A stretch of DNA of 64,000 nt from an uncultured Pelagibacteraceae bacterium (GTDB lineage: Bacteria; Pseudomonadota; Alphaproteobacteria; Pelagibacterales; Pelagibacteraceae), in assembly GCA_902618205.1 (NCBI GenBank), contig CACMZL010000001.1, positions 1 to 64,000 on the forward strand. The letters are read 5' to 3'. This document shows positions 10,822-64,000 of the stretch, piece by piece; the stretch's first letter is position 1, and each line of letters opens with the position of its first letter. Below the pieces are notes generated by a model. It was given only the letters and a program-made list of their open reading frames with translations, was not told the DNA's origin and made no database searches. A program made the translations under genes and the position numbers.

Positions 10822-10897
10822 TGGCTCCTCGGGCAGGACTCGAACCTGCGACCAATTGATTAACAGTCAACTGCTCTACCAACTGAGCTACCGAGGA
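10822..10897 (-). tRNA. tRNA-Asn (anticodon GTT)
   Basis: On the minus strand: acceptor TCCTCGG/CCGAGGA, D arm GCTC/GAGC, anticodon stem GTTGA/TCAAT around CTGTTAA (anticodon GTT), T arm GCAGG-TTCGAGT-CCTGC, discriminator G and encoded CCA. Lies just after the XRE gene and in tandem with tRNA-Cys. Confidence 0.97.
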
Positions 10898-36156: not shown

Positions 36157-36179
36157 TATTTTATTTTATCAATTTAGCA

Positions 36180-36983: not shown

Positions 36984-36984
36984 A

Positions 36985-37731: not shown

Positions 37732-37769
37732 TTATTCACTTGACTAAAATAAGTTTTATTATTATTTAA

Positions 37770-37784
37770 TGTTATATTATAACA
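37770..37784. promoter_or_regulatory. Zur box between znuC and znuA
   Basis: TGTTATATTATAACA is a perfect 7-1-7 inverted repeat and matches the core of known Zur operators (TGTTATANTATAACA). It lies in the short divergent region and overlaps the first in-frame ATG of the znuA frame, which argues for the downstream start at 37805. One box can control both znuCB-zur and znuA. Confidence 0.85.
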
Positions 37785-37804
37785 ATTATCAAAAACCAAT
37801 TATT

Positions 37805-38899: not shown

Positions 38900-38907
38900 T
38901 TTAATTA

Positions 38908-39882
38908 ATGGGAGAAACTAACAAACAAGTTCCAGTTACTGTTTTAACTGGCTTTTTAGGCGCTGGAAAAACTACTCTTTTAAATAGAATATTAACTGAG
39001 CAGCATGGAAAAAAATATGCTGTGATAGTTAATGAGTTTGGTGAGCAGGGCATTGATAACGATTTAGTTGTCGATGCTGATGAAGAAGTATTTGAGATGA
39101 ACAACGGTTGCATATGTTGCACTGTAAGAGGTGATCTAATCCGTATTCTAAGTGGCCTCATGAAGCGTGCAGATAAACTTGATGCAATCATAGTAGAAAC
39201 TACTGGATTAGCTGATCCAGCTCCTGTTGCACAAACATTTTTTGTTGATCAAGATGTTGCGGATCGTACAAAATTAGATGCAATTGTTACTGTTGCTGAT
39301 GCTGTTCACTTGAGTACACAATTATCAGATCATCATGAAGCAGAAGAACAAATTGCATTTGCTGATGTTGTATTATTAAACAAAATAGATCTTGTTGATG
39401 AAAGTGGATTAGAAGTTGTTAAAGAGAGAATAAAAAAAATTAATCCATTTGCAAAAATTATTCATACCACTAAATGTGGAGTATCTTTAAGTGAGATTTT
39501 AAATCTTGATGCTTTTAATTTAAAACGTATTTTAGATACTGAGCCTGATTTTTTAACATCAGACCACGATCATGAACATGATGATGATGTAACTAGCTTA
39601 TCATTTGTTTCAGATACTCCTTTAGATATGGAAAAGTTTCAGGATTGGTTTAGCAAGCTTTTACAAACAAAGGGACAAGATATATTAAGAACCAAAGGGA
39701 TTCTCGATTTTACTGGAGAAAATGATAGATATGTTTTTCAAGGTGTGCATATGCTTATGGATGCCTCGCCAATGGGTAAATGGCCAGAAGGCAAAGAACG
39801 AAACTCTCGACTAGTTTTTATTGGTCGAAATCTTGAGAGTATGAATTTGAAAGAAGGATTTGAAAATTGCAAATCGGCATGA
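38908..39882 (+). CDS. COG0523-family GTPase (CobW-like zinc metallochaperone)
   Basis: G3E-class GTPase thought to deliver zinc to client proteins when zinc is scarce. 324 residues: P-loop GFLGAGKTTLLN (about 14-25), the CxCC metal motif NGCICCTVRGDL (about 67-78), switch GLADPAPV, NKID base motif, and a His/Asp-rich linker SDHDHEHDDD (about 222-231) before the CobW C-terminal domain. ATG 8 bases after znuA, so probably co-transcribed under the Zur box. Cobalamin-type CobW is less likely because no cobalamin genes are near. Confidence 0.88.
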   Translation: MGETNKQVPVTVLTGFLGAGKTTLLNRILTEQHGKKYAVIVNEFGEQGIDNDLVVDADEEVFEMNNGCICCTVRGDLIRILSGLMKRADKLDAIIVETTGLADPAPVAQTFFVDQDVADRTKLDAIVTVADAVHLSTQLSDHHEAEEQIAFADVVLLNKIDLVDESGLEVVKERIKKINPFAKIIHTTKCGVSLSEILNLDAFNLKRILDTEPDFLTSDHDHEHDDDVTSLSFVSDTPLDMEKFQDWFSKLLQTKGQDILRTKGILDFTGENDRYVFQGVHMLMDASPMGKWPEGKERNSRLVFIGRNLESMNLKEGFENCKSA

Positions 39883-40922
39883 AAGCTGATTCAAATAAGT
39901 TTCCAGAGTTAAATAAAACCAAATTTGAAAATAGAGGAAAGGAGTTTAAGCTTGGAATTCCTGTTACTAATGCTATTACGATTGGGAATTCTGTAGCTGT
40001 TGGATTTGGAGATGGAACTGTAAGAATATTTCGCTCAGGACAAATTTCAGAGGTAATAAAAGCACATAGCGGTGTTGTTCTTAGTATTTCAAAAGATGGT
40101 GAAGATATTTTAACTGGTGGCGATGATGGTAGATTTTTAAAAATTTCACTTGATGGAGAAATAAACGAAATTGCAAACTTTGGTTCTCGATGGGTAGATC
40201 ATGTTACTGCATATAATGGTAGTTTGGTATGTACATCTGGAAATATTGTTTATCTCTGGATGCCAAATAAAAAAGAACCAAAATTATTAGAACACGAGAG
40301 TACCATCGGTGGTGTAGCATTTGATTCAAAGGGAAGAAGACTAGCAGTGTCTCGTTATGGTGGAGTTACTCTTTGGAAAAAAGATTATAGTAATAAGTGG
40401 AGCTCATCCAATTTAATTTGGAAAGGCTCGCACAATAAAGTCATTTTTAGCACTGATGATCGATTTTTGGTTACATCTATGCAAGAAAACCAACTTCATT
40501 TTTGGCGCTTAAAAGATAAAACAGATTCCTTCATGTCTGGCTATGGAGCAAAAGTCAAAAGTTTTGCTTTTGTTTATGATTCAAAATTTTTAGTAACATC
40601 CGGTTCAAATGAAGCAATCTGTTGGCCGTTTGATGGAAATGGACCAGAAGGTCGTAAACCAATTTGTCTTCCTTACGTTGGAAATAAACTAGTAACTTTT
40701 GTTGAGCCATTCCCAAACGAAAATGCGATTTTCACTGGTTTAAGTGATGGTTCAGTTTTTTTATCAGAAATTGAAAAATCAACCAATACGATCATCATCC
40801 GTAGCTTCACTGAGTCCGAGGTAACAACAATTGCAGTGACCGAAGATTGTTCAAGTATATTAATTGGTGATATCGGAGGAAATATTTTATGGACATCAAT
40901 ATGGGATGAAGAGGAAAAATAA
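39879..40922 (+). CDS. WD40-repeat protein of the zinc operon
   Basis: 347-residue protein with WD40-like repeats that would form a beta-propeller; typical strands include VAVGFGDGTVRIFRSG, ILTGGDDGRFLKISLDG, NEAICWPFDGNG and IFTGLSDGSVFLSEIE, each with the GD/WD turn spacing. No signal peptide, so cytoplasmic and perhaps a docking platform. ATG (39879) overlaps the GTPase stop by 4 bases. An upstream TTG start (39867) is less likely. No enzyme motif seen; function not established. Confidence 0.75.
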   Translation: MKADSNKFPELNKTKFENRGKEFKLGIPVTNAITIGNSVAVGFGDGTVRIFRSGQISEVIKAHSGVVLSISKDGEDILTGGDDGRFLKISLDGEINEIANFGSRWVDHVTAYNGSLVCTSGNIVYLWMPNKKEPKLLEHESTIGGVAFDSKGRRLAVSRYGGVTLWKKDYSNKWSSSNLIWKGSHNKVIFSTDDRFLVTSMQENQLHFWRLKDKTDSFMSGYGAKVKSFAFVYDSKFLVTSGSNEAICWPFDGNGPEGRKPICLPYVGNKLVTFVEPFPNENAIFTGLSDGSVFLSEIEKSTNTIIIRSFTESEVTTIAVTEDCSSILIGDIGGNILWTSIWDEEEK

Positions 40923-49767: not shown

Positions 49768-50004
49768 ATGCCACAGATCGGCTGGTTTGAAATATTAATA
49801 ATAGTATCTATTGCAATAATAGTTGTAGGACCAAAAGACTTTCCTGTAATGTTAAAAAAAGTTGGATCATGGATAGGTTCAGCCAAAAGATATTTTTCAG
49901 ATGTTCAAAATCAAGTTACAGAAATAACTGATGTTTCAATTAAAGAAGAATTAAAAAAAAACACTGAAATCATGAAAGAGGATAAACCTAAAGATGACAG
50001 CTAA
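49768..50004 (+). CDS. tatB: Sec-independent protein translocase TatB
   Basis: Receptor-complex subunit. 78 residues, short for TatB, which is often over 100; the membrane helix is IGWFEILIIVSIAIIVVGPKD with the VVGPKDFP hinge that separates TatB from TatA, followed by an amphipathic helix (GSWIGSAKRYFSDVQNQ). The shortened C-terminal tail fits general streamlining. Overlaps tatC by 11 bases. Confidence 0.92.
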   Translation: MPQIGWFEILIIVSIAIIVVGPKDFPVMLKKVGSWIGSAKRYFSDVQNQVTEITDVSIKEELKKNTEIMKEDKPKDDS

Positions 50005-50767
50005 AAAAAAAGAAACAGGTTTTATAAGTCATCTTACTGAATTAAGACAAAGACTAATAAATTCATTTATCTTCTTAGCAGTATTATTTGTAGTTTGTTA
50101 CTATTTTTCTGAATACATATATGGATTTTTAGTTGAACCTTACGCTAATGCTGTAAAGGATGATAATGTCGATAGAAGATTAATCTTTACCGCTCTTCAA
50201 GAAACATTTTTAACATATCTTAAAGTTTCTTTTTTTGCTGCTTTCTTTGTGACCAGTCCATATATCCTTATTCAAATTTGGAAATTTATTGCACCAGGAT
50301 TATACACCCATGAAAAGAAAGCAATTATGCCTTACTTAGTAATTACACCAGTACTTTTTTTACTAGGAGGTATGCTTGTTTATTATCTAATTATGCCACT
50401 AGCATTTAAATTCTTTTTATCATTTGAAAGTGCGGGACTTGGAACTAGCTTACCGATTCAATTAGAAGCTAAAGTAAATGAATACTTATCTCTTGTGATG
50501 AAGTTAATTTTTGCATTTGGATTAAGTTTTCAGCTACCAGTTGTATTAAGTTTGCTTGCAAGAATAGGAGTCGTAAATTCAACTTATTTAAGAGAAAGAA
50601 GAAAATATTTTGTTGTAATAATATTTGCTGCTGCAGCAATATTAACTCCACCAGATCCAATTACACAAATAGGTTTAGCAATACCTTTGTTAATTTTATA
50701 TGAATTATCAATTTTTTCTGTAAATATTATCGAAAAGAAAGCTCAAGAGAGAAATGCACAATATTAA
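49994..50767 (+). CDS. tatC: Sec-independent protein translocase TatC
   Basis: Signal-recognition subunit of Tat. 257 residues, six membrane helices; signatures FISHLTELRQRLINS at the N-terminus, FFAAFFVTSPYILIQIWKFIAPGLY, and AAAILTPPDPITQIGLAIPLL. Overlaps serS by 14 bases. Confidence 0.96.
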   Translation: MTAKKKETGFISHLTELRQRLINSFIFLAVLFVVCYYFSEYIYGFLVEPYANAVKDDNVDRRLIFTALQETFLTYLKVSFFAAFFVTSPYILIQIWKFIAPGLYTHEKKAIMPYLVITPVLFLLGGMLVYYLIMPLAFKFFLSFESAGLGTSLPIQLEAKVNEYLSLVMKLIFAFGLSFQLPVVLSLLARIGVVNSTYLRERRKYFVVIIFAAAAILTPPDPITQIGLAIPLLILYELSIFSVNIIEKKAQERNAQY

Positions 50768-52013
50768 GGATATTAGAAAAGATATCGATAATTTTAAAAA
50801 TACAATTAAAAATCGAAATGTTGATGTAGACTTTGACCAAATATTAAATCTTGATGAAGAAAATAGAAAATTAATTCAAGAAAAAGAAAAATTAGAAATG
50901 GAAAAAAAATCTATTTCTAAATCTAAAGATGAAACCCTTTTTGAAAAGTCAAAAGAAATTTCAAATAAAATAGATGATTTAAGTAAAAATCAAAAAAATG
51001 TTAAAGACCAACTTGATCAGATATTAGGTAATATTCCTAATTTACCATTGAATGATGTTCCCGTAGGTAAGGATGAAAACAGCAATAAAGAGGTTGTAAA
51101 ATCTGGTGAAATTAAAGAAATGAGTTTTAAACCAAAATCTCATTATGAAATTGGTGAAAAACTAAATATGTTAGATTTTGATTTAGCAACAAAAACAACT
51201 GGATCAAGATTTGTTTTTGTTAAAGACAAATTAGCATCATTAGAAAGAGCAATTTCTAATTTTATGATTGATACGCATGTCAATAATAATGGTTACACTG
51301 AAATCTCTCCACCTTTAATGGCGACAGACAACACTATGTTTGGAACTGGCCAATTGCCCAAATTTGAAAATGACCAATTCGAAATTAAGTTTGATGATAA
51401 AAATGATAGAAAGTTTTTAATCCCTACTGCTGAAGTAATATTAACTAATATGGTTAAAAATCAGATATTAAATCTAAAATCCTTGCCAATGAGATTAGTT
51501 GCATCAACACCTTGTTTTAGAAAAGAAGCAGGAAGTTATGGTAAAGATACAAAGGGCATGATTAGACAACATCAATTTTATAAAGTTGAGTTAGTCAGTA
51601 TTGTAGAAAATAATAAATGCATTGAAGAACTAGAGAGAATGACTAATTGTGCAACTAAAATTTTAGATGATTTACAATTACCTTACAGAAAAATTATTTT
51701 AAGCACTGGTGATATGGGTTTTAGTGCAGAAAAAACTTATGACATAGAGGTTTGGCTTCCATCTGAAAATAAATATAGAGAAATATCAAGCTGTTCTTCA
51801 TGTGGAACATTTCAGGCTAAAAGAATGAAAGCTAGATATAAAAATAATAATAACGAAAATGAATTTGTTGGTACTTTAAATGGGAGTGGACTTGCCGTTG
51901 GAAGAACTTTAATTGCGATATTAGAAAATTATCAAACTGAGGATGGTTCAATAACTATTCCTGAAAAACTAAGACCATATATGAACAATATGGAGAAAAT
52001 AGGTATCAATTAA
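50754..52013 (+). CDS. serS: Seryl-tRNA synthetase SerS
   Basis: Charges tRNA-Ser. 419 residues: N-terminal coiled-coil arm (about 1-105, rich in Lys/Glu heptads), then class II motif 2 FRKEAGSYGKDTKGMIRQHQFYKVELV (about 260-285) and motif 3 GSGLAVGRTLIAILENYQ (about 380-396). Motif 1 is within SRFVFVKDKLASLERA. In many alphaproteobacteria surE and pcm follow serS; here yajC follows directly. Confidence 0.97.
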   Translation: MHNIKDIRKDIDNFKNTIKNRNVDVDFDQILNLDEENRKLIQEKEKLEMEKKSISKSKDETLFEKSKEISNKIDDLSKNQKNVKDQLDQILGNIPNLPLNDVPVGKDENSNKEVVKSGEIKEMSFKPKSHYEIGEKLNMLDFDLATKTTGSRFVFVKDKLASLERAISNFMIDTHVNNNGYTEISPPLMATDNTMFGTGQLPKFENDQFEIKFDDKNDRKFLIPTAEVILTNMVKNQILNLKSLPMRLVASTPCFRKEAGSYGKDTKGMIRQHQFYKVELVSIVENNKCIEELERMTNCATKILDDLQLPYRKIILSTGDMGFSAEKTYDIEVWLPSENKYREISSCSSCGTFQAKRMKARYKNNNNENEFVGTLNGSGLAVGRTLIAILENYQTEDGSITIPEKLRPYMNNMEKIGIN

Positions 52014-52070
52014 GAGTTGTCTTCTAAAAGTATATAGTATAAATAATCGTTAACTTTTTAAGGACTTAAC

Positions 52071-52355
52071 ATGGACGCAGGAATTGGACAATTTATACCC
52101 CTAATTTTAATATTCGTAATATTTTACTTTTTCTTAATTAGACCCCAGCAAAAGAAAGTTAAAGAACATAAGGCTATGGTTGAAGCTTTAAAGCGTGGAG
52201 ATAAAGTTATTACTTCTGGTGGTATTGTTGGCACTGTAGAGCGAGTTATCGATAATGAAAAAGTGGAAGTTATGATAGCTGATAATGTTAAAGTTGAAAT
52301 TGTTCGAGCTACAGGAATTCAAGGACTAGTTACTAAAGCTGAACCAAAAAAATAA
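52071..52355 (+). CDS. yajC: Preprotein translocase subunit YajC
   Basis: Accessory subunit associated with SecDF-YidC. 94 residues: membrane helix PLILIFVIFYFFLIRPQQKK, and the conserved ALKRGDKVITSGGIVGTVERV beta-region. The 57 bases upstream contain TTGTCT and TATAAA-like elements at 15-base spacing, a possible but unproven promoter. secD follows after 12 bases. Confidence 0.94.
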   Translation: MDAGIGQFIPLILIFVIFYFFLIRPQQKKVKEHKAMVEALKRGDKVITSGGIVGTVERVIDNEKVEVMIADNVKVEIVRATGIQGLVTKAEPKK

Positions 52356-52367
52356 TAACTTCTTAAA

Positions 52368-53921
52368 GTGTTATATTTTTCTAAATTAAGAGTTTTTAGT
52401 GTTTTAATTTTTACACTTATTATTTCATATTTTACCATTTCCAATTTTACAAAAGTTGATGATGAATTTTTCTCTAAAAATATAAAATTAGGATTAGATC
52501 TTCAAGGTGGTTCTTATTTATTATTAGAAATAGATAACGAACCAGTCATTATTCAAAGATTACAAAGTAAAGTATTAGAGTTAAAAAAATTTTTTAAAGA
52601 TAAAGATATCAAAGTTAGAAATTTTGTAATTGAAGATAAGTCAATTATATTTGATGTTGAAAATTCTAAGATTGAGGATGTTAAATCTCTTTTAGATGAT
52701 GATAAAAGTGAGATAAATCCATATTTTCAGCAATATAAATCTCATCAATTTAAATTTGAAAACATGGATACATCATTCAAGTTAGAATTTTCTGACTATG
52801 GATTGGTATTGTTAAAAAATTCTTCATTAGATCAAGCAATTGAAATTGTAAGAAGAAGAGTTGATGAAGTAGGAACTAATGAGCCAAATATTTTAAAAAG
52901 AGGTAATGATAGAATTCTTGTTGAGTTACCAGGACTGGATGATCCTGGTAGAATAAAATCTTTATTGGGTAAAACAGCAAACCTAACATTCCAATTTATA
53001 TCCATTAGTTCAGAAGGCTCTTTTGGAACAGAAAAACTTAAATTTGAGGATGGCTCTGGTGAGGCTGTAGTTAGTAAACGAATTGTTTTAAGTGGTGACA
53101 ATCTTATGGATGCTAAGCCTACCATGAATAATCAGACTAATGAAACAGTTGTTTCATTTAGTTTGGATAGGGTAGGAGCAAAAAAGTTTGGTAAGGCGAC
53201 TTCAAATGGTGTTGGAAAAAGGTTGGCAATTGTCTTGGATGGAAAAATTATTAGTGCCCCTGAAGTCAGAGAACCAATTATTGGAGGAAATGGACAGATA
53301 TCTGGTAATTTCACATTTCAATCTGCAACAGATTTAGCTTTACTTTTAAGATCAGGTGCTTTGCCGGCTCCACTTAATATTATTGAAGAAAGAACTGTAG
53401 GTCCCGACCTTGGAAAAGATTCAATTAATGCAGGAATTATGTCATTGATAATAGGATTTATCTTAGTCGTTGCCTTTATGTTTTATAAATATAGATTTTT
53501 CGGTTTAATTGCTAACTTAGCCTTAATTTCTAATTTATTTTTATTAGTCGGAATTTTAACATTATTTGAAGCAACTCTTACACTCCCTGGAATTGCAGGT
53601 ATTATTTTAACAGTAGGTATGGCCGTTGATGCAAATGTTTTAATTTTTGAGAGAATTAAAGAAGAATTAAAAAATGAAAATAATTCAATTGTAGCTTTTG
53701 ATTCTGGTTATACAAAATCACGAACAACAATTTTAGATGCCAATATTACAACTTTAATCGCTGCAGTAATCCTATTTTTCATGGGCTCAGGTCCAATTAA
53801 AGGATTTTCTATAACACTTGGAGTTGGAATACTTACAACACTGTTTTCAGTATATTTCATTGCCCGTTTGATTACTGCTTACTATGTTATCAAAAATAAA
53901 CATAAGGAAAAACTTATATAA
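52368..53921 (+). CDS. secD: Protein translocase subunit SecD
   Basis: Proton-driven partner that pulls secreted proteins across the membrane. 517 residues starting at GTG: first helix, then LGLDLQGGSYLLLEID (motif D1), ILVELPGLDDPGRIKSLLG, APEVREPIIGGNGQISG, and D4-type helix sequence GIILTVGMAVDANVLIFERIKEEL with conserved Asp. Coupled to secF by TAATG overlap. Confidence 0.95.
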   Translation: MLYFSKLRVFSVLIFTLIISYFTISNFTKVDDEFFSKNIKLGLDLQGGSYLLLEIDNEPVIIQRLQSKVLELKKFFKDKDIKVRNFVIEDKSIIFDVENSKIEDVKSLLDDDKSEINPYFQQYKSHQFKFENMDTSFKLEFSDYGLVLLKNSSLDQAIEIVRRRVDEVGTNEPNILKRGNDRILVELPGLDDPGRIKSLLGKTANLTFQFISISSEGSFGTEKLKFEDGSGEAVVSKRIVLSGDNLMDAKPTMNNQTNETVVSFSLDRVGAKKFGKATSNGVGKRLAIVLDGKIISAPEVREPIIGGNGQISGNFTFQSATDLALLLRSGALPAPLNIIEERTVGPDLGKDSINAGIMSLIIGFILVVAFMFYKYRFFGLIANLALISNLFLLVGILTLFEATLTLPGIAGIILTVGMAVDANVLIFERIKEELKNENNSIVAFDSGYTKSRTTILDANITTLIAAVILFFMGSGPIKGFSITLGVGILTTLFSVYFIARLITAYYVIKNKHKEKLI

Positions 53922-54814
53922 TGAAAACAATCTATTTTAATAAGTTTTATAAAAGTTTTAATATACTTTCAGGTATATTAATCATAGCTTCCTTAGTTTT
54001 CTTAGTTTTTAAAGGATTGAATTTTGGTGTTGATTTTAAAGGGGGTACTCTAATAGAGCTAAGGACTGACAAATCTTCTGCTAATATAACAAAAATAAGA
54101 GATAGTTTTAATCAAATGAATCTTGGTGATGTTTCAGTGAAAAATTTTGGTAATGAAACAGATTTTGTAGTTAAATTTGAAAAACAAAATTCAAATGACT
54201 CTCAATTTATAGAGGAGATAAAAACTAAGCTATCAAATTCTATAGGTACGGTTGATTTTAGAAGAGTAGAAAATGTTGGGCCAAAGGTTAGTGCAGAACT
54301 TTTAAGGTCAGGTGTAATAGCGATAGCTTTATCTTTGGCGGCTATGCTTTTATATATTTGGATCAGATTTGAGTGGCAATTTAGTCTTGGAGCTATTTTA
54401 GCTTTATTTCATGACGTTATAATTACATTAGGAGTATTTTCTGTATTTTCATTAGAAATCAATCTTTCAATTGTTGCAGCTGTTTTAACAATAGTTGGAT
54501 ATTCAATGAATGATACAGTTGTAATATTTGATAGAGTTAGAGAAAATTTGCGTAAATATTCAGATATTAAAATATTTGAACTAACAAATATCTCAATAAA
54601 TGAAACTTTATCCCGAACAATAATAACTTCAGTTACTACATTGTTGGCACTTTTATCTATATTTATTTTTGGTGGAGAAATATTAAAAGGATTTTCGTTG
54701 GCAATGATATTAGGAGTAATTTTTGGAACTTATTCATCTATTTATATTGCAAACCCAGTGTTGGTTTCTTTAAAAGTTAGCCAAAGAACGATTGTTAAGG
54801 AAGAAAAAGAATAA
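53921..54814 (+). CDS. secF: Protein translocase subunit SecF
   Basis: Partner of SecD. 297 residues: GLNFGVDFKGGTLIELRT (motif F1-like), IRFEWQFSLGAILALFHDVIITLG with the conserved Asp-containing helix, and TIVGYSMNDTVVIFDRVRENL, all diagnostic. The stop is immediately adjacent to the stop of the convergent PuuD-like gene with no gap. Confidence 0.95.
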   Translation: MKTIYFNKFYKSFNILSGILIIASLVFLVFKGLNFGVDFKGGTLIELRTDKSSANITKIRDSFNQMNLGDVSVKNFGNETDFVVKFEKQNSNDSQFIEEIKTKLSNSIGTVDFRRVENVGPKVSAELLRSGVIAIALSLAAMLLYIWIRFEWQFSLGAILALFHDVIITLGVFSVFSLEINLSIVAAVLTIVGYSMNDTVVIFDRVRENLRKYSDIKIFELTNISINETLSRTIITSVTTLLALLSIFIFGGEILKGFSLAMILGVIFGTYSSIYIANPVLVSLKVSQRTIVKEEKE

Positions 54815-55417
54815 TTAATAAAGGTTTTGTGCTGCTACCATTGTTAACAACATTGGTAAGGATAAAAGTGTATTTGTTCTAGAAAATAGCATTGCAGTCT
54901 TTGCTGATTTAGCTTTAACTTCTGATTCACACTCAACCATACCTAAAGCTCTTTTTTGATTTGGCCATATAACAAACCAAACATTGAATGCCATTATTAA
55001 CCCTAACCACATTCCAATTCCTATTGCAGTATTTTTTCCGCCACCTGATCCAATTCCTAATGTCATTGCTTGATGAACGTATCCATTAAAATAGGCTAAT
55101 AATAATCCTGATATGATTGTAAATAGCGCTGCCCATCTAAACCAAAATAATGCTGCAGGAGCTATAACTTTGCCTATCGCTGGTTTTTGTTCGTCTGGAA
55201 TTTTAGCCATGTTAGGAATTTGAACAAAATTGAAATACCAAAGTAAACCAATCCACATAATACTTACAGTTACATGTACATATCTTAATAACCAGCTCCA
55301 AAATAAAACATCAAAATCAAATCCACCATTACCGATGTAAAGACCAATGAATAGTAATATTGCAATAGCTAATGATAAATGAACAGTTTTTGATAATGAT
55401 TGTAATATGGAAGTCAT
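54815..55417 (-). CDS. PuuD-like (urate hydroxylase membrane domain) protein
   Basis: 200-residue membrane protein with about five or six predicted helices. Several features resemble the urate hydroxylase PuuD membrane domain: RYVHVTVSIMWIGLLWYFNFVQIP near the N-terminus and GLIMAFNVWFVIWPNQKRALG. It is much shorter than complete PuuD and has no CxxCH cytochrome c motif, so it may be a paralogue with another quinone- or heme-linked role. Two His in the first helices could bind heme. Function in urate oxidation is therefore uncertain. Confidence 0.6.
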   Translation of the reverse strand: MTSILQSLSKTVHLSLAIAILLFIGLYIGNGGFDFDVLFWSWLLRYVHVTVSIMWIGLLWYFNFVQIPNMAKIPDEQKPAIGKVIAPAALFWFRWAALFTIISGLLLAYFNGYVHQAMTLGIGSGGGKNTAIGIGMWLGLIMAFNVWFVIWPNQKRALGMVECESEVKAKSAKTAMLFSRTNTLLSLPMLLTMVAAQNLY

Positions 55418-55452
55418 CTGTGAAATGATTTTATATTATTTTTCTATAAAGA

Positions 55453-58329
55453 TTAAGCGGTTTTTTTAAATTTTGTATCTAATAAAGGCTTTAAAAATTT
55501 ACCTGTATAGCTATCTTTCACTTTTGCAACTTCCTCGGGTTTGCCTTCGGCAATAATATTTCCGCCTTTAACACCACCCTCGGGTCCCATATCTACAATA
55601 TAATCGGCAGTTTTAATAACATCTAAATTATGCTCAATAACTACAACTGAATTACCTGTTGCAACAAAGGTGTGCAATATTTCCAAAAGTTTTTTTATAT
55701 CATGTTGATGTAATCCAGTAGTTGGTTCATCTAATATATACATGGTTCTTCCTGTAGACCTTTTAGATAATTCTTTAGCAAGCTTAATTCGTTGGGCTTC
55801 TCCACCTGATAGAGTTGTTGCTTGTTGACCAATTTTTATGTAGCCAAGACCAACTTTTTTTAATGTTAAAAGTTTAGTTTTGATATTTGAAATATTTTCA
55901 AAATACTCACATCCTTCATCAACTGTCATATTTAAAACATCCGCAATACTCTTATCTTTGAATTTAATCTCTAGTGTTTCTCTGTTGTATCTAGTGCCTT
56001 TGCACTCATCGCAAGTTATATAAACATCAGGAAGAAAGTGCATTTCGTAAGTAATTACACCATCTCCTTCACATGCTTCACATCTTCCACCCTTTACATT
56101 GAAAGAAAATCTTCCAGGTTTATAGCCTCTACTTTTTGCTTCAGGTAAATTGGTAAACCAGTCTCTGATAGGACCAAAAGCTCCAGTATATGTAGCAGGA
56201 TTTGATCTAGGAGTTCTACCAATAGGTGATTGATCAATATCTATAACTTTATCAATTAATTCTATTCCTTTAAATCCTCTAAATGGCTGAGGAATTTTTC
56301 TAGACTTATTATTATTCAAAGTAAGATTTAATGCATTGTATAAAGTTTGAAGTATCAAAGTAGATTTACCACTTCCTGATACACCTGTAACACAAGTGAA
56401 ACTACCCAAAGGTATTTTTAAATTTACGTTATTTAAATTATTTCCTGATGCACCATTGATTTCTAAAAATCTACCATTTTTTGCAAGTCTTCTATTTTTT
56501 GGAATAGGTATGAAACTCTTATTTGATAAATATCTTCCAGTAATACTTTTATCATTTTTTAAAATTTGCTCATATGTGCCTGCAGCAACAATTTCTCCAC
56601 CTTTATTTCCAGCTTCAGGTCCTAAATCTATTATATGATCTGCATTCTCCATTGTTTCTGTATCGTGTTCAACAACAATAACAGTATTACCTAAGTCTCT
56701 TAATCGTTTTAATGCATCTATTAGTTTAACATTATCTTTTTGATGCAAACCAATTGATGGTTCATCTAAAACGTAAAGTACTCCAGTTAAACCTGATCCA
56801 ATTTGTGATGCTAGTCTAATCCTTTGTGCTTCGCCACCAGATAATGTTCCAGACTCTCTAGATAAAGTTAAATAATCAAGACCAACATTTAAAAGAAAAT
56901 CTAAACGTTCATTAATTTCTTTTAATATATGTTGAGCAATTTTAATTTGTCTTTTGTCTAATTTAACCTCTAAAGATCTAAACCATTCTTTAGCATCAAA
57001 AATCGATTTTTCTGTAACTTGACTTATGTTTAATTCATTTATTTTAACACACAGAGCTTCATCTTTTAATCGATAACCATTGCATCTTTCACATTTTGTA
57101 TCAGATTGATACTGAGCAATTTCCTCTCTTTTCCAATCACTATCTGTTTCTAAATATCTTCTCTCTAAATTATTGACAACACCTTCAAAAGTTTTTTTGT
57201 GCGAATATTTTTCATAACCATCATCATAAGTAAATTTTATTTCCTCATCGTCAGAACCATATAAAATTACATCCTTAATTTTTTTTGATAGTTTTGACCA
57301 TTTATCATCTAATGAAAAACCATAATGTTTAGATAAAGATGCCAATGTTTGGGCGTAATACATTGATGTAGATTTAGCCCAAGGTTCTATAGCTCCATCT
57401 GCGATAGATTTTTTTTCATTTGGAACAACTAAATTTGGATCAACATTTAATTTCATTCCAATACCTTCACATTCTTCACAAGCTCCATACGGACTGTTGA
57501 ATGAGAAAAGTCTTGGTTCAATCTCTTCAATAGTAAAACCACTTTCAGGACAAGCAAATTTGGTTGAGAAAATTAATTTTTCAATTTTTCTGTATTTCTT
57601 TGGAAGTGTTTCATTTTCATATTCAACAAAAAGTAATCCATTTGCTAAATTAACAGCTGTTTCAACACTTTCGGCTAATCTATTTCCTAATGATGAATTT
57701 ATTACAATTCTATCAACTAAGATTGAAATATCGTGTTTAAGTTTTTTATTTAATTCTGGAACACTTTCAATATCATACAATTGGTCATCAACTTTGATTT
57801 TTCTAAATCCTCTTTTTTTGTATCCTAATATATCTTTTTTGTATTCACCTTTACGTCCTCGCACGACTGGAGCATATAAATATATGGTAGATTTTTTTGG
57901 TAATTCTTTAATCTTATCAACAATCTGACTAATTGTTTGAGAAGTAATTGGTTTACCAGTAAATGGAGAGTAGGGTATTCCTGCTCTTGCATAAAGTACT
58001 CTCATGTAGTCATATATCTCGGTAACAGTTGCAACTGTTGATCTTGGATTTTTAGATGTATTTTTTTGCTCTATAGATATTGCAGGACTCAAACCTTCGA
58101 TTAAATCTACATTTGGTTTTTTCATTTTATCTAAAAACTGTCTTGCGTATGCAGATAAACTTTCAACATATCTTCTTTGACCCTCTGCATAGACAGTATC
58201 AAATGCTAATGATGATTTTCCTGACCCAGATAGACCTGTTATTACAACAAATTTGTCTTTAGGAATCTCTAGTGAAATATTCTTTAAATTGTGCTCTTTT
58301 GCGCCCTTAATAAGTATCTTTTTAAGCAT
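55453..58329 (-). CDS. uvrA: Excinuclease ABC subunit A (UvrA)
   Basis: Damage-recognition ATPase of nucleotide excision repair. 958 residues: first Walker [13 protein letters not shown] (about 32-43), signature/insertion domain with [20 protein letters not shown], second signature [12 protein letters not shown] twice, second Walker [12 protein letters not shown] (about 645), zinc finger [21 protein letters not shown] with CDECKG, and closing Walker [13 protein letters not shown]. The first finger has CPxS where E. coli has CPxC, as is usual in alphaproteobacteria. Divergent from ssb. Confidence 0.97.
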
Positions 58330-58374
58330 AATTTTAGTTGCTTTAGATTAATAAAATTAATATTCAAGCCTATT

Positions 58375-58392
58375 AATGTTATAAATAACATT
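58375..58392. promoter_or_regulatory. Inverted repeat in the ssb/uvrA divergent region
   Basis: AATGTTAT-AA-ATAACATT, perfect 8-base arms with a 2-base centre, 17 bases before the ssb ATG. No typical alphaproteobacterial LexA site (spaced GAAC/GTTC halves) was seen. It resembles the Zur palindrome core but with a different centre, so it is not assigned. Confidence 0.4.
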
Positions 58393-58409
58393 TCAAATAT
58401 ATAAATATT

Positions 58410-58856
58410 ATGGCAGGAAGCTTAAATAAAGTACTTTTAATCGGTCGATTAGGCGCAGATCCAGAAATTAAACAGATGGTTAACGGCAAAAGTGTAGCAA
58501 GATTAAGCCTAGCTACTAGTCAATCATGGAAAGATAAAAATACTGGTGAAAAAAAGGAAAAAACTGAATGGCACAGAGTAGTTGTTTTTAATGAAGGATT
58601 AGTAAATGTAGTTCAACAATATTTAAAAAAAGGAGCACAAGTATACGTTGAAGGACAACTGACTACTAGAAAATGGAAAGATGAACAATCAGGTCAGGAT
58701 AAATATTCTACTGAAATTTTAATTCAAGGATACAATTCATCATTAACAATGTTAGGTGGGGGAAATCAAAATTCAATTCCATCTCAAGATAACAAACAAA
58801 GCTTTGATGATAGTTCAATGGCTCAAAATGAGTTAGATGATGATATTCCTTTCTAA
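58410..58856 (+). CDS. ssb: Single-stranded DNA-binding protein Ssb
   Basis: Binds ssDNA in replication and repair. 148 residues: OB-fold (about 4-110) with [32 protein letters not shown] and [16 protein letters not shown], a short polar linker, and the conserved acidic C-tip DDDIPF that recruits partner proteins. gyrA follows after 4 bases. Confidence 0.96.
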
Positions 58857-58860
58857 ATAA

Positions 58861-61434
58861 ATGCAAAAAAACGAATTAACTAAAGATTTAAATATCAAAC
58901 CAATTTCAATGTATGATGAAATGAGTTCATCATATTTATCTTACGCCATGAGCGTAATAATTAGTAGGGCATTACCTGACATAAGAGATGGACTTAAACC
59001 TGTTCACAGAAGAATTTTATATGCAATGCACAAAGGTGGTTTTGATTGGTCAAAACAATTTAGAAAATCTGCAAGAATTGTTGGAGATGTAATTGGTAAG
59101 TATCATCCGCATGGTGATCAAGCTGTGTATGATGCCTTGGTTAGAATGGTTCAAGATTTTTCAATGAGTGTTCCTTTAATTGATGGTCAGGGCAATTTTG
59201 GTTCAATCGATGGTGATCCACCTGCAGCAATGAGGTATACAGAAACAAAACTTGCAAAAATATCTCAATTTTTGATTGATGATATTGAAAAAAATACTGT
59301 CTCATTTAAAAGTAACTACGACGAAACTGAACAAGAGCCTACAGTATTGCCAGCTCAATATCCTAATCTTTTAGTAAATGGAGCCGGAGGTATCGCTGTT
59401 GGTATGGCAACTAGTATACCACCACATAATCTTGGTGAAATAATTGATGGAACTTTAGCTCTTATTAAAAATAAAGATATTAAAGTTAAAGAGTTAATGA
59501 AGCATATACCTGGCCCTGATTTTCCAACTGGTGGAGTTATTATCGGTAAAGATATTATTCGAGAAGGATATAAAACAGGCAGAGGTTCTTTTAAAATTAG
59601 GGGTGAAATAAACGTAGAAAATCTTAAAAATGGTAAAGATAGATTAGTAATTACTTCAATACCTTATCAAGTAAATAAATCTAACTTAAATGAAAAAATT
59701 GCAGAATTAGTTAGAGACAAAAAAATAGAAGGTATAAGTGACATTAGAGATGAATCTAATAGAGAAGGTATAAGAGTTGCTATCGATCTAAGAAGAAGCG
59801 TTGAGCCCGAGACAATAAAAAGACAACTTTATAAATATACATCCATTGAAACTTCATTTGGATTTAATTCATTAGCAATTGTTGATAACAAACCTAAAAC
59901 ATGTTCATTAAAAGATTTTTTAGAGAACTTTTTAAAATTTAGAGAAGATGTAGTTATTAAAAAAACTAAATATGATTTAAAAAAAGCTGAAGATCGTGTT
60001 CATATTTTACTTGGTTTATCTGTTAGTGTAGAAAACATTGATAAAGTAATAAAAATTATTAGATCTTCAAAAAATCCGGAAGAAGCAAAAAATACTCTTA
60101 TAAAAACTAAATGGAAAATAACAAAATCTGCAAAATTAATTAAATTAGTTGATAGTAAAAATTATAAAGGATCTTACAACTTATCTGAAACTCAGGTTAC
60201 ATCAATATTAGAACTTAGATTACAAAAATTAACAGCTCTTGGAATTAACGAAATTGAAGAAGAAATAAAAAAATTATCTGAATTGATTACAAAGTATAAA
60301 AAAATAATAAATTCTAAAAGTGAACTATTAAAAGTAATTAGTAATGAGTTATCTCAAATTAAAGAGAAATTTTCATCTCCGAGAAGAACACAGATTATAG
60401 ATGCAGTTTTAAACTATAATATTGAAGAAACTATTCAAAAAGAGTCTGTAATAATTACAATTACTTTACAAGGATACATTAAAAGAGGTGCCTTAAGCAA
60501 TGTTAAACAACAGAAAAGAGGTGGAAAGGGTAAAACAGGGATAAAGACAAGAGACGAAGATTCTGTAGTACAAACATTATCAGTAAATACACACACATCT
60601 GTTCTATTTTTCTCTACTGAAGGATTAGCATACAAAGTTAAAGCTTGGAAAATTCCAGAGGGATCAGCTGCATCCAAAGGAAAGTCTTTATTTAATATTC
60701 TTCCTCTAAAAAACCATCAATCAATTAGTTCAATTATGCCATTTCCAGATAGTGATGTTGATACAAAAGACATGCATATCATTTTTGCAACAAGTGAAGG
60801 AAAAATTAGAAAGAATAATCTTGAAGATTTTACCTCAATTAATGCTTCAGGTAAAATTGCAATGAAGCTTGATGGCAACGATAAAATTATTGGTGTTAAA
60901 ATTTGTAGAGATGATCAGGATATAATTTTAAGTACTAAATTAGGAAAATGTATAAGGTTTGAGTCTAAAAAACTTAGAGTCTTTAAAGGCAGATCATCAA
61001 AAGGTATAAGAGGTATAAATTTAGCAGAAAATGATACTATCGTATCTCTGTCTATTATTGATCATGACTCAAATAAGAAAGCAAAAACTAAAGACCAAAA
61101 ATCTGAAATTAAAGCTAAAGAAAAATTCATACTGTCAATCACAGAAAATGGTTACGGTAAGAGAACATCTCATTATGATTATAGAGTTACAAATAGAGGA
61201 GGAAAGGGAATTATTGGTATTGTTAATTCACAAAGAAACGGTAATGTTTCCTCATCTTTTCCTGTTTTTGAAGGAGATCAAATATTAATTTCTACAAATA
61301 AAGGTAGAGTAATAAGAACAGCTGTTAAAGAAATAAGAATAGCTGGTCGTAATACTCAAGGTGTCAGAATTATTAAACTGACTGGTGATGAAAAAGTAGT
61401 TTCTGCTATTAAATTAGATGATAATCTCATTTAA
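58861..61434 (+). CDS. gyrA: DNA gyrase subunit A
   Basis: Breakage-reunion subunit of gyrase. 857 residues: N-terminal [22 protein letters not shown], active-site region [11 protein letters not shown] (catalytic Tyr), and the C-terminal beta-pinwheel with a GyrA box in [15 protein letters not shown], which marks gyrase rather than topoisomerase IV. The quinolone-pocket helix reads [13 protein letters not shown], with Gln 87 at the Ser 83 position of E. coli. A Lys-rich insertion (near 735-755) lies in the pinwheel. Overlap with coaD by one base. Confidence 0.96.
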
Positions 61435-61928
61435 TGAAAAATATAGCTATCTATCCAGGAACTTTTGATCCAATTACTTTTGGCCATATAGATGTAATTA
61501 AAAAATCACTTAAGATAGTAGATAAAGTAATTGTAGGTATTTCAGATGGAAATCAGAAAAACTTCCTATTTACATTAGATGAAAGAATAGAAATTGTTAA
61601 AAGAGCTCTTTATAAAGATCTGAAATTTAAAAAGAATAAGGTTGATGTTATAAAATTTAATACTTTGACAACAGACCTTTGTAAAAAATATAAATCAAAT
61701 ATAATCTTAAGAGGCTTAAGAGCAGTTTCTGATTTTGAGTACGAATTCCAACTTGCTGGAATGAATAGAAAACTTAATAATCAAGTTGAGACAATTTTTT
61801 TAATGTCAGATGTTGAAAATCAAATAATATCATCTAGATTTGTTAAAGAAATCGCTCAACATAATGGTGATTTGAAAAAATTTACTACCAAAAGTACAAT
61901 TAAATCATTGAAAGAGGTTTATGAATAA
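61434..61928 (+). CDS. coaD: Phosphopantetheine adenylyltransferase CoaD
   Basis: Penultimate step of coenzyme A synthesis. 164 residues: AIYPGTFDPITFGHIDVIKKS (nucleotide-binding HxGH-type TFGHI), KNFLFTLDERIEIV, LRGLRAVSDFEYEFQLAGMNRKL, and the closing SSRFVKEIA. Typical length. The ATG overlaps the gyrA stop (TAATG); the 3' end overlaps the cyclophilin by 8 bases. Confidence 0.96.
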   Translation: MKNIAIYPGTFDPITFGHIDVIKKSLKIVDKVIVGISDGNQKNFLFTLDERIEIVKRALYKDLKFKKNKVDVIKFNTLTTDLCKKYKSNIILRGLRAVSDFEYEFQLAGMNRKLNNQVETIFLMSDVENQIISSRFVKEIAQHNGDLKKFTTKSTIKSLKEVYE

Positions 61929-62478
61929 ATTTTTAAATATTTTAATTATTTTTTTTATTTTTTTATCAACAAATTTAATAGCAAAGGAGAATATAATGAT
62001 TTTAAAATTAAAAGACGGTGTTGTAAAAATTGAAATGTATCCTGATGTTGCACCAAATCACGTTAAAAGAATTCAAGAGTTAGCAGACTCAGGACAATAT
62101 GATAATGTTGTTTTCCATAGAGTAATTGATGGGTTTATGGCACAAACAGGTGATGTAAAATTTGGAAATTCATCCTCTAAAGATTTTGATTTAAGAAGAG
62201 CAGGTATTGGTGGATCTGATTTACCAGATTTAAATCAAGAATTTAATAATCTACCTCATGAAAGAGGAACTGTATCTATGGCAAGATCTTCAGATCCTAA
62301 TAGTGCTAATAGTCAGTTTTTTATTTGTTTTAAACCTGCACCTTTTTTAGATAGGCAATATACTGTTTTTGGAAAAGTAATCGAAGGTATGGAATTTGTT
62401 GATATGATTGCAAAAGGTGATGGTGACAACGGAGCAGTTTCAAATCCTGATAAAATTATTAGTTTTAAAACTCAATAA
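61921..62478 (+). CDS. Cyclophilin-type peptidyl-prolyl isomerase
   Basis: Protein-folding enzyme. 185 residues; the cyclophilin core has VVFHRVIDGFMAQTGDV (catalytic Arg), FNNLPHERGTVSMARSSDPNSANSQFFICFKPAPFLDRQYTVFGKVIEGM and a family-typical closing. The first 25 residues form a signal peptide (FLNILIIFFIFLSTNLIA), cut before KEN, giving a periplasmic form. An internal ATG at 61996, preceded by a strong Shine-Dalgarno, would give a cytoplasmic form beginning MILKLKDGVV. Both might be made. Confidence 0.9.
   Translation: MNKFLNILIIFFIFLSTNLIAKENIMILKLKDGVVKIEMYPDVAPNHVKRIQELADSGQYDNVVFHRVIDGFMAQTGDVKFGNSSSKDFDLRRAGIGGSDLPDLNQEFNNLPHERGTVSMARSSDPNSANSQFFICFKPAPFLDRQYTVFGKVIEGMEFVDMIAKGDGDNGAVSNPDKIISFKTQ
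61984..61998 (+). promoter_or_regulatory. Internal Shine-Dalgarno and ATG within the cyclophilin signal sequence
   Basis: AAGGAG at 61984-61989 is followed 6 bases later by an in-frame ATG at 61996-61998, codon 26 of the long form. It is stronger than the start context of the long form and would yield the mature-like protein without the signal peptide. Confidence 0.55.
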
Positions 62479-62489
62479 TTAAATAATGA

Positions 62490-63602
62490 ATGTCATTAAA
62501 AGATTTCAATTTTAATGTCCATCATACTCAAAATTATGCAAGAGTAGGAGTTATAGAGACCCATAGAGGTAATATTAATACTCCTGCATTTATGCCTGTG
62601 GGTACACAAGCAACTGTTAAAGGTGTTTTTTTAGATGATATAAAAAAAACAGGTAGCGAAATCATCTTATCAAATACGTATCATCTAATGATAAGACCTG
62701 GTGTTGAAAGAATTGAAAGTGTTGGAGGACTTCATGAATTCATGAATTGTGATCTACCAATTTTGACTGACTCAGGTGGTTTTCAAGTAATGTCTCTGTC
62801 GAAATTAAATAAAATCGATAGAGATAAAGGCGCAATTTTTCAATCACATATTGATGGTAAAACTTTTATTTTAAGTCCAGAAGAAAGTATAAGAATTCAA
62901 AAAGGTTTGAACTCTGACATAGTCATGGTTATGGATGAATGCCCAAAAAATACAAAAGACTATGATAAAATTAAAAAATCAATGGAATTATCATCCGATT
63001 GGGCAAAAAGATCAAAAGATGCATTTGGAATAAATGAACACAAAGGTTTATTTGGAATAGTACAAGGTGGTTTATTTAACGATCTAAGAAAAAAATCCCT
63101 AAACAACCTCATTGACATTGGTTTTAATGGATATGCTCTTGGAGGATTAGCTGTTGGGGAAACACAAGATGAAATGTTTGACGTTCTTGATGGAATAAAA
63201 GATCATATGCCTAAAGATAAACCAAGATATTTAATGGGTGTTGGCACACCATCTGATATACTTGGAGCCGTAAAGAGGGGTGTTGATATGTTTGACTGTG
63301 TAATGCCCACAAGATCTGGCAGAACTGGTTTAGCTTTTACATGGGATGGTCAAATACAAATTAGAAATTCAAAATATAAAAATGATAATACTCCACTGGA
63401 CAAAAATGTCACAAAATTCAATTTAAACAAATATTCTAAAAATTATCTAAATCACTTGTTTAATACAAATGAAATGCTTGCTTCAATGATTCTAACCCTT
63501 AACAATATCAATTTTTATCAAAATTTAATGAGTAATATTAGAGATAATATAAAACAAGGAACTTTTGATGAATTTCACAACAAGTACATCAATAAATTGT
63601 AA
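62490..63602 (+). CDS. tgt: Queuine tRNA-ribosyltransferase Tgt (zinc ligands replaced)
   Basis: Exchanges guanine 34 of GUN-anticodon tRNAs for the queuosine precursor base. 370 residues with MPVGTQATVKGVF, SNTYHLMIRPG, the catalytic Asp region LTDSGGFQVMSL, GIVQGG, ALGGLAVGE and the second Asp in VDMFDCVMPTRSGRTG, so the enzyme identity is firm. At the C-terminal zinc site (CxCxxC plus a distant His in the bacterial family), this protein has Val 307, Lys 309, Leu 312 and Asn 338, none a ligand. Structural zinc is probably absent. queA is not in the window. Confidence 0.93.
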   Translation: MSLKDFNFNVHHTQNYARVGVIETHRGNINTPAFMPVGTQATVKGVFLDDIKKTGSEIILSNTYHLMIRPGVERIESVGGLHEFMNCDLPILTDSGGFQVMSLSKLNKIDRDKGAIFQSHIDGKTFILSPEESIRIQKGLNSDIVMVMDECPKNTKDYDKIKKSMELSSDWAKRSKDAFGINEHKGLFGIVQGGLFNDLRKKSLNNLIDIGFNGYALGGLAVGETQDEMFDVLDGIKDHMPKDKPRYLMGVGTPSDILGAVKRGVDMFDCVMPTRSGRTGLAFTWDGQIQIRNSKYKNDNTPLDKNVTKFNLNKYSKNYLNHLFNTNEMLASMILTLNNINFYQNLMSNIRDNIKQGTFDEFHNKYINKL

Positions 63603-63652
63603 ATTTTTAACATTGATTAATAAAAAAAAATCAATATAAAAACGCTTCTTGG

Positions 63653-63728
<76 letters not shown>

Positions 63729-63798
63729 TTAATCAATAAAACCGTCCTTAATATTCAGTGTGTAAAAACTTTTTTATTAAAAATATTGATTTTATTCG

Positions 63799-63816
63799 TG
63801 CACATTCTTTGCACAT
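63799..63816 (+). promoter_or_regulatory. TGCACAT direct repeat upstream of the last gene
   Basis: TGCACAT-TCTT-TGCACAT: perfect 7-base direct repeat with 4-base spacer, the 11-base period used by OmpR/PhoB-type regulators but a different half-site from the Pho boxes. It lies 84 bases before the partial secreted-protein gene. Confidence 0.4.
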
Positions 63817-63900
63817 TTATTGAAATATAATTTGATGTGAAATAGCTAATTTTTATTAAAGTTAATTATAAATAATTTTTGTATGTTTAATATATATTTT

Positions 63901-64000
63901 ATGAAAAAGTTATTAAATGTGCTCTTAATTTTTTTTCTTCTCACAAGCAATGTTTATGCTGACATAAAAGGTGTAGGAAGATGTATTGGTTATCTTGTAA
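63901..64000 (+). CDS. Secreted protein, N-terminal fragment (cut by window edge)
   Basis: Open frame from ATG at 63901 to the right edge, 33 codons. It begins with a clear signal peptide (MKKLLNVLLIFFLLTSNVYA) and continues DIKGVGRCIGYLV, with one Cys. The upstream DNA is AT-rich, with no clear Shine-Dalgarno. The remainder is outside the window, so no family can be assigned. Confidence 0.6.
   Translation, partial: MKKLLNVLLIFFLLTSNVYADIKGVGRCIGYLV

What the first reader, a model, noticed from the sequence alone, without database searches (positions are those of the whole stretch)
62490..63602. tRNA-guanine transglycosylase lacking all four structural zinc ligands
The family zinc site (E. 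coli Cys302, Cys304, Cys307, His333) aligns to Val307, Lys309, Leu312 and Asn338 with flanking sequence conserved (YSKNYLNHLF, NINFYQNLM). Catalytic residues stay intact. A zinc-free Tgt would save metal in zinc-poor ocean water and fits the strong zinc theme of this window. The alignment is by eye from known homologues.
Basis: partly seen in the sequence, partly recalled or inferred. Interest (0 to 1): 0.7.

Follow-up and report, generated by a model that had tools for sequence, protein, structure and literature searches.

The report
SAR11 tRNA-modifying enzyme without zinc site
An enzyme that swaps a base in transfer RNA has, in this ocean bacterium, lost all four amino acids that hold its usual zinc atom while keeping the residues needed for catalysis, and the same site is eroded in relatives from soil- and animal-associated groups, so it is probably a real zinc-free version but not a special adaptation to zinc-poor seawater.

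Summary
The 370-aa ORF at 62490-63602 is the genome's only tRNA-guanine transglycosylase (bTGT) match; E. coli Cys302, Cys304, Cys307, His333 align to Val307, Lys309, Leu312, Asn338. No new Cys/His cluster replaces them. Catalytic and preQ1-pocket residues are intact; dN/dS against close relatives is 0.025-0.087.

None of 104 Pelagibacterales sequences read (window included) keeps more than two ligands. The site is also eroded in other Alphaproteobacteria (Bradyrhizobium, Mesorhizobium, Microvirga; 39 of 39 full-length enzymes read from a Bartonella genus). A DNA pattern for the motif is missing from 48 of 88 alphaproteobacterial genomes but 2 of 161 other Pseudomonadota (pattern counts). The gene tree needs at least 13 state changes. 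Erosion of a dispensable structural site fits better than saving zinc in seawater.

The genome has Tgt and a queuosine-precursor transporter, but no QueA or QueG match, and its QueF- and QueC-profile hits are FolE and MnmA. The likely product is preQ1-tRNA. That salvage state was proposed for Pelagibacter and Bartonella in 2024 (PMC11570991), where the B. henselae enzyme partly complemented E. coli; its main text does not mention zinc. Metal content and activity of SAR11 Tgt are unmeasured.

The parts
62490..63602 (+). tgt, tRNA-guanine transglycosylase (bTGT), 370 aa, without the zinc site
   Evidence: only PF01702 match in the genome (477.7 bits), TIGR00430 463.8 bits (cut-off 306.75), best PDB match Z. 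mobilis TGT, E 2.6e-125.
63408..63425 (+). codons of V307, K309 and L312, the places of zinc ligands Cys302, Cys304 and Cys307 (E. coli numbering)
   Evidence: codon positions worked out from the ORF start and the sequence.
63501..63503 (+). codon of N338, the place of zinc ligand His333 (E. coli) / His349 (Z. mobilis)
62769..62771 (+). codon of D94 (Z. mobilis D102), active-site aspartate (role recalled)
   Evidence: D in all sequences of that alignment.
62934..62942 (+). codons of D149 (Z. mobilis D156) to C151 (C158), base recognition (role recalled)
   Evidence: D149 and C151 in all sequences of that alignment.
63153..63155 (+). codon of V222 (Z. mobilis V233) in GGLAVG, the preQ1-type pocket
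   Evidence: V in all SAR11 sequences read; passages of PMC6165067 and section 15 of PMC11570991 explain Val versus Gly.
63294..63296 (+). codon of D269 (Z. mobilis D280), catalytic aspartate (role recalled)
   Evidence: D in all sequences of that alignment.
10822..10897 (-). tRNA-Asn (GUU), one of the four expected substrates, with U33-G34-U35 in the anticodon loop

Best explanation
This is a working bacterial tRNA-guanine transglycosylase that folds and dimerises without the structural zinc. The four ligands eroded step by step (in this family Cys307 first, then Cys302/Cys304, His333 mostly last) and were replaced by ordinary side chains (V, K, L, N) that pack or face solvent. The alphaproteobacterial subdomain evidently tolerates metal loss, and the loss recurred several times in unrelated lineages. 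In this organism the enzyme most likely takes preQ1 imported by a YhhQ/QPTR-type transporter and exchanges it for guanine 34 in tRNA-Asp, -Asn, -His and -Tyr; the pathway ends there because QueA and QueG are missing. Shown by sequence: ligand loss, intact active site, selection, gene inventory, recurrence. Inferred: absence of bound zinc, order of loss, dimer formation, activity, preQ1 as substrate and end product.
For: Ligands: 0 of 4 in the window. Of 70 sequences of its family 10 keep none, 8 one, 52 two, none three or four; all 34 of the second family keep two. Catalytic and pocket residues are invariant in the SAR11 sequences read; of the positions recalled as dimer contacts Y319 and H322 are fixed, F84 is Phe in all but two, and Trp326 of Z. 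mobilis is Tyr. dN/dS 0.025-0.036 against five relatives, 0.087 against two more distant ones. AlphaFold2 model from 28 sequences, none with the full site: mean pLDDT 91.5, residues 301-370 at 89-98 per block of ten; superposes on Z. mobilis TGT at 1.3-1.4 A over about 367 residues. Recurrence: 13 state changes among 130 Tgts, against a mean of 43.4 (minimum 35) in 100 label shuffles. Pattern absent in 48 of 88 alpha genomes and 2 of 161 other Pseudomonadota. 39 of 39 full-length Tgts read from the Bartonella-containing genus keep one ligand, and B. henselae bTGT partly complemented an E. coli tgt mutant given preQ1 (PMC11570991 section 16). Gene inventory: QueA absent from the seven genera of this family (all 41 hits of 297 genomes are in the sister family); QueG in 1 of 18 genomes, the sister family's; the QueF hit of the window's genome and of G103 are FolE; the QueC hits of the window's genome and of G001 are MnmA; QPTR present. 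tRNA-Asn with U33-G34-U35 lies in the window.
Against: No metal analysis or activity exists for any SAR11 Tgt that I know of. TGT is stated to need zinc for activity (PMC9508795 passage, citing Chong 1995, not read), so loss could impair it. The B. henselae sequence was not identified by name; its ligand state is inferred from its genus, and complementation was partial. The model inherits the family fold and cannot see metal. preQ1 in B. henselae tRNA was only at trace level. Habitats of other lineages come from names only. PMC11570991 also says that all organisms analysed except Bartonella had tgt, queA and queG (section 18), which disagrees with its section 15 on Pelagibacter and. No co-varying residue that would explain the tolerance was found.
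Confidence: 0.72

Rival explanations
1. Zinc-saving adaptation: selection in zinc-poor seawater removed the zinc from an expendable site to lower the cell's zinc quota.
For: All 104 Pelagibacterales sequences read have lost at least two ligands. The window carries zur, znuABC-type genes and a COG0523 gene. SAR11 is reported to have minimised metal uptake with high-affinity zinc uptake as the exception, and most surface-water isolates have znuA (PMC4771312 passages). UvrA in the window has also lost one Cys of its first zinc site.
Against: Same site eroded in Bradyrhizobium, Mesorhizobium, Microvirga, a Bartonella genus and other alphas. znuA in only 50% of the surveyed SAR11 genomes while the Tgt erosion was in all read. 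Type I FolE and the second UvrA zinc site are kept.
Confidence: 0.13
2. Zinc or another metal is still bound, through fewer or different ligands or across the dimer.
For: Most relatives keep two ligands, and H322 is fixed close to the subdomain. L222, an unrelated alpha Tgt, has His at two ligand places in a His-rich stretch, so replacement sites may exist elsewhere.
Against: The window protein keeps none of the four, and in its family no other Cys/His column of the region is fixed except H322, which zinc-bearing homologues have too.
Confidence: 0.07
3. The enzyme inserts queuine directly, as in Chlamydia and eukaryotes, so the tRNA carries queuosine made elsewhere.
For: Tgt plus transporter without QueA/QueG is the gene pattern of queuine salvage. 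B. henselae proteins with the same pocket motif used queuine above 500 nM.
Against: Pocket has C151 and V222, the preQ1 type, in all SAR11 sequences read. PMC11570991 argues for preQ1 on the same ground.
Confidence: 0.15
4. The protein has lost transglycosylase activity and is kept for another role.
For: The other queuosine genes searched are gone and the metal site is degraded.
Against: Catalytic residues are fixed, dN/dS is about 0.03 among close relatives, and the gene is found in 141 of 150 genomes of the order that are at least 90% complete.
Confidence: 0.04

Closest known systems
Zymomonas mobilis TGT (PDB 1pud, 1ozm and others), a bTGT with zinc
   Same: Fold (1.3-1.4 A over about 367 residues, 53-54% identity), active site and preQ1 pocket.
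   Different: Z. mobilis has all four zinc ligands; the window protein has none.
Escherichia coli Tgt
   Same: GGLAVGE pocket and overall alignment.
   Different: E. coli keeps C302, C304, C307 and H333 and sits in a full queuosine pathway (genes seen).
Bartonella henselae bTGT (PMC11570991)
   Same: tgt and QPTR without queA/queG, GGLAVG pocket; the 39 full-length enzymes read from that genus have lost three of four ligands.
   Different: The genus keeps the Cys at position 304 and has lost the others in its own way (S-C-A/T-N). Activity is shown for B. henselae, not for SAR11.
Second Pelagibacterales family in this sample (f2)
   Same: Also lacks the full zinc site.
   Different: Pattern S-N-C-H in all 34 read; QueA beside tgt and QueG in the one f2 genome tested.
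Chlamydia trachomatis TGT / eukaryotic QTRT1
   Same: Work without the other queuosine enzymes in the cell.
   Different: A glycine at or beside the place of Val233 lets them take queuine (passages); the window protein keeps valine.

Membership tests
bacterial tRNA-guanine(34) transglycosylase (TIGR00430 / PF01702) | Profile score above the curated cut-off | tested here: met
   463.8 bits vs 306.75; 477.8 vs 26.3.
bacterial tRNA-guanine(34) transglycosylase (TIGR00430 / PF01702) | Catalytic aspartates and base-recognition residues | tested here: met
   D94, D149, D269, Q192, G219 and S95 aligned to Z. mobilis D102, D156, D280, Q203, G230 and S103.
bacterial tRNA-guanine(34) transglycosylase (TIGR00430 / PF01702) | TIM-barrel fold with C-terminal subdomain | tested here: met
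   AF2 model pLDDT 91.5; VIA Z about 55 to Z. mobilis TGT, model residues 2-370 spanned.
zinc-bearing TGT (zinc domain called a hallmark of TGTs in PMC6165067) | C-x-C-x2-C ... H structural zinc site | tested here: not met
   V-x-K-x2-L ... N. It is a bTGT by homology and active site but not a zinc-site TGT.
bacterial tRNA-guanine(34) transglycosylase (TIGR00430 / PF01702) | Transglycosylase activity on tRNA with G34 | not testable with these tools
   A substrate tRNA-Asn with U33-G34-U35 is present; no assay.
queuine-inserting TGT (Chlamydia / eukaryote type) | GG[LS][AS]G pocket (PMC11570991 section 15), Gly in place of Val233 | tested here: not met
   GGLAVG in the window; V at this place in all SAR11 sequences read.
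complete queuosine pathway | QueA, QueG, QueF, QueC in the genome | tested here: not met
   QueA and QueG no match. QueF profile hit of 23.6 bits (cut-off 27.3) is FolE. QueC profile hit of 22.6 bits, just over the cut-off of 22, is MnmA, 412.4 bits to its model. QueH, QueD and QueE were not searched.
QPTR (YhhQ, COG1738) salvage partner | TIGR00697 above cut-off | tested here: met
   99.6 bits vs 50.95 for the protein at G000:C2; the narrower NF008406 model is not reached, 125.4 vs 252.

The most novel reading that the evidence does not exclude
In Alphaproteobacteria the structural zinc of Tgt is a dispensable relic that has been exchanged for ordinary side-chain packing several times. The extreme, zero-ligand form sits in SAR11 ocean bacteria whose tRNA ends at preQ1, so preQ1 taken from seawater would be an unrecognised exchanged vitamin, handled by a metal-free enzyme.
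Probability: 0.4. Interest if true: 0.62.

Novelty: new variant of a known kind. Interest (0 to 1): 0.5.

Why it matters
TGT is described as a zinc metalloenzyme and its zinc domain as a hallmark of the family. Repeated loss of the site in one bacterial class, including a genus with an enzyme known to work, suggests that the metal is not needed for the reaction, and gives natural sequences for a clean test of what it is needed for (stability, dimer). It also warns against transferring zinc annotations, and ties a very abundant ocean group to preQ1 salvage.

Tried and rejected
Zinc-poor-ocean explanation: set back by losses in lineages of other habitats. Chance or sequencing error: set aside because nine named genome records carry the same or near-identical letters and dN/dS is low. 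Link between zinc loss and loss of the queuosine pathway: set aside, because the second Pelagibacterales family has QueA and, in the one genome tested, QueG, and still lacks the site; most Alphaproteobacteria are reported as queuosine prototrophs (PMC11570991 section 18). A compensating residue: the 22 column-residue pairs most associated with site loss were tested on independent pairs (output cut; repeated in full). Only Cys307 and Cys302 themselves reach a median p of 0.016; no other column comes near. There are only 8 well-supported independent pairs, so power is low. preQ1 riboswitch: no Rfam match above gathering score in window 50000-64000 except a tRNA, and none in four stretches round the transporter gene. 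A solved zinc-less TGT: a PDB search with the Bartonella-type enzyme gave Z. mobilis TGT first; entries 10fa, 10fb and 10fc were not looked into. Print on zinc-site loss in TGT: none seen, which cover open-licence PMC papers only.

In the class scan 155 of 385 genomes lacked the motif pattern, which overstates loss: of 79 genomes picked by hand, one per family, among those outside SAR11, 56 had a Tgt, 50 were read, and 16 of the 50 have all four ligands. Six were not read (three fragments, three full-length). Some of these families also have members with the pattern. One search was not followed up by reading, except G742; its 48 of 88 and 2 of 161 are pattern counts, several families supply many of the 88, a genome without Tgt counts as lacking the pattern, and at least one non-alpha match (G697) looks like chance. 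L138 ends before the His position (contig end). The tree is a quick one: 50 of 127 inner branches have support under 80.

Full report
What is there. The window ORF at 62490-63602 encodes a 370-aa protein. It is the only TGT-family match in the genome and passes the curated cut-off of the Tgt equivalog by a wide margin. Z. mobilis TGT is the best match among solved structures.

Is the rest intact? Residues aligned to Z. mobilis D102, S103, D156, C158, Q203, G230, V233 and D280 are identical in the window and in all SAR11 sequences read. Of positions recalled as dimer contacts, those of Tyr330 and His333 are fixed, that of Phe92 is Phe in all but two SAR11 sequences (Tyr), and Trp326 is Tyr. Between the window gene and five close relatives dN/dS is 0.025-0.036; against two more distant ones it is 0.087. 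In the window's family no Cys/His column of residues 286-370 is fixed other than H322; in the second family His321, His322 and the ligand places Cys307 and His333 are. A model predicted from 28 sequences, none with the full site, has mean pLDDT 91.5 and superposes on Z. mobilis TGT over the whole length, zinc subdomain included. The model cannot tell whether metal is bound.

How far does it go in SAR11? PF01702 is found in 259 of 297 genomes of the order, and in 141 of 150 that are at least 90% complete. I read 91 of these 259 and 13 named records. Of the 70 from the window's family, 10 keep no ligand, 8 one and 52 two; all 34 of the other family keep two, always Cys307 and His333. In the window's family Cys307 is gone in all 70 (S or L), Cys302 or Cys304 may remain, and His333 remains in 55 of 70. 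If lost ligands are not regained, the two families lost the site separately (inference).

How far beyond SAR11? Of 67 named non-SAR11 relatives 50 keep all four ligands and 17 do not; the 17 include Bradyrhizobium, Mesorhizobium, Microvirga, Alsobacter, Hyphomicrobium and an uncultured Bartonella. In a scan of 385 genomes of the class, 230 carry a DNA pattern for the motif. Among the genomes without it outside SAR11 I picked 79 by hand, one per family: 56 have a Tgt, 50 were read, 34 lack at least one ligand and 16 have all four, having escaped the pattern. Twenty of twenty pattern-positive controls have all four. In a phylum scan of 249 genomes the pattern is absent from 48 of 88 alphaproteobacteria, the window's genome included, and from 2 of 161 others (rows counted by hand, sequences not read apart from G742). 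On a tree of 130 Tgts (62 intact, 68 not) built without the zinc columns the state changes at least 13 times, against a mean of 43.4 and a minimum of 35 for 100 shuffles. The gamma and delta outgroups in it are intact, so most changes are likely losses (inference). Only 4 of the 241 sequences tabulated have three of four ligands, as expected if a site that has lost one ligand soon decays.

Does a zinc-site-less Tgt work? The genus of G742 contains two enzymes 99% identical to the named uncultured Bartonella locus L135, and one member, G910, has a tgt broken by stops, as reported for B. quintana. All 39 full-length Tgts read from it have a single ligand left (34 S-C-A-N, 5 S-C-T-N). B. henselae bTGT partly complemented an E. 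coli queDF tgt deletion mutant with preQ1 down to 10 nM (PMC11570991, section 16). The main text of that paper has no occurrence of zinc or cysteine. I did not identify the B. henselae sequence by name, so the link is through the genus. It is still the strongest evidence that activity survives loss of the site.

What does the SAR11 enzyme do? QueA is absent from the window's genome and from all seven genera of its family in the sample; the 41 hits among 297 genomes are all in the sister family, where queA lies beside tgt. QueG is found in 1 of 18 genomes, again the sister family. The QueF profile gives weak hits in 17 of 18 genomes, one of them (G103, 28.0 bits) over the cut-off of 27.3; the two that I checked, the window's genome and G103, are FolE. 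The QueC profile gives hits over its cut-off of 22 bits in 18 of 18 genomes, at 25-32 bits at best; the two that I checked, the window's genome and G001, are MnmA. The others were not checked. A YhhQ/QPTR transporter is present in 20 of 21 genomes examined, the window's own scoring 99.6 bits to TIGR00697. It was also found in four of the five examined genomes without a Tgt match. The pocket is of the preQ1 type. So the likely route is import of preQ1, base exchange at G34, and no further step. Quaiyum and colleagues proposed this for Bartonella and Pelagibacter in 2024 (PMC11570991, section 15); elsewhere in the same paper they state that all organisms analysed except Bartonella had tgt, queA and queG (section 18), which the present counts do not bear out for this family.

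Why was zinc lost? But the loss is shared with alphas of other habitats (recalled from their names), is found in all SAR11 sequences read though znuA was in only half of the genomes in that survey, and zinc enzymes such as FolE are kept. I favour permissive erosion of a structural site that this class can do without. What made the class tolerant is not known; the search for a co-varying residue found none but had little power.

Papers: PMC11570991 abstract, passages and sections 15, 16 and 18 read; PMC6165067, PMC9508795, PMC4771312 and PMC11130926 passages only; PMC13416341 searched for zinc terms, none found. The roles of single catalytic and dimer residues are recalled; the zinc mutagenesis paper (Chong 1995) was seen only as a citation.

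Noticed in passing
55453-58329 (-), UvrA residues 260-287: First zinc site of UvrA reads CPES...CEEC where E. coli has CPIC...CPTC: one Cys is Ser. The second site (CEAC...CDEC) is intact. Another eroded zinc site in the same window.
   Followed up: partly
35761-39882: Zinc cluster: Fur-family/Zur-like regulator, ZnuB-like permease, ABC ATPase, divergently placed ZnuA with a His run, COG0523/CobW GTPase.
   Followed up: partly
39867-40922 (+): WD40/beta-propeller protein overlapping the end of the COG0523 gene; a possible zinc-linked partner of unknown role.
   Followed up: no
L222 (G601), zinc region: Divergent alphaproteobacterial Tgt with His at two Cys places in the stretch PGHHHEHTSH: possibly a His-based replacement metal site rather than a lost one.
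   Followed up: no
G351:C2:34354-35484 and G542:C1:54807-55982: Tgt matches that run through one in-frame TGA each; these genomes may decode TGA as an amino acid.
   Followed up: no
G097, G103, G111, G147: QPTR transporter found in four SAR11 genomes where no Tgt was found; the missing Tgt may be an assembly gap or the transporter may have another use.
   Followed up: no
G795 and G798: The only two non-alpha Pseudomonadota genomes of 161 without the zinc pattern; sequences not read.
   Followed up: no
63653-63728 (+): tRNA-Lys (UUU) just downstream of tgt; its anticodon is not of the GUN type that Tgt acts on.
   Followed up: no
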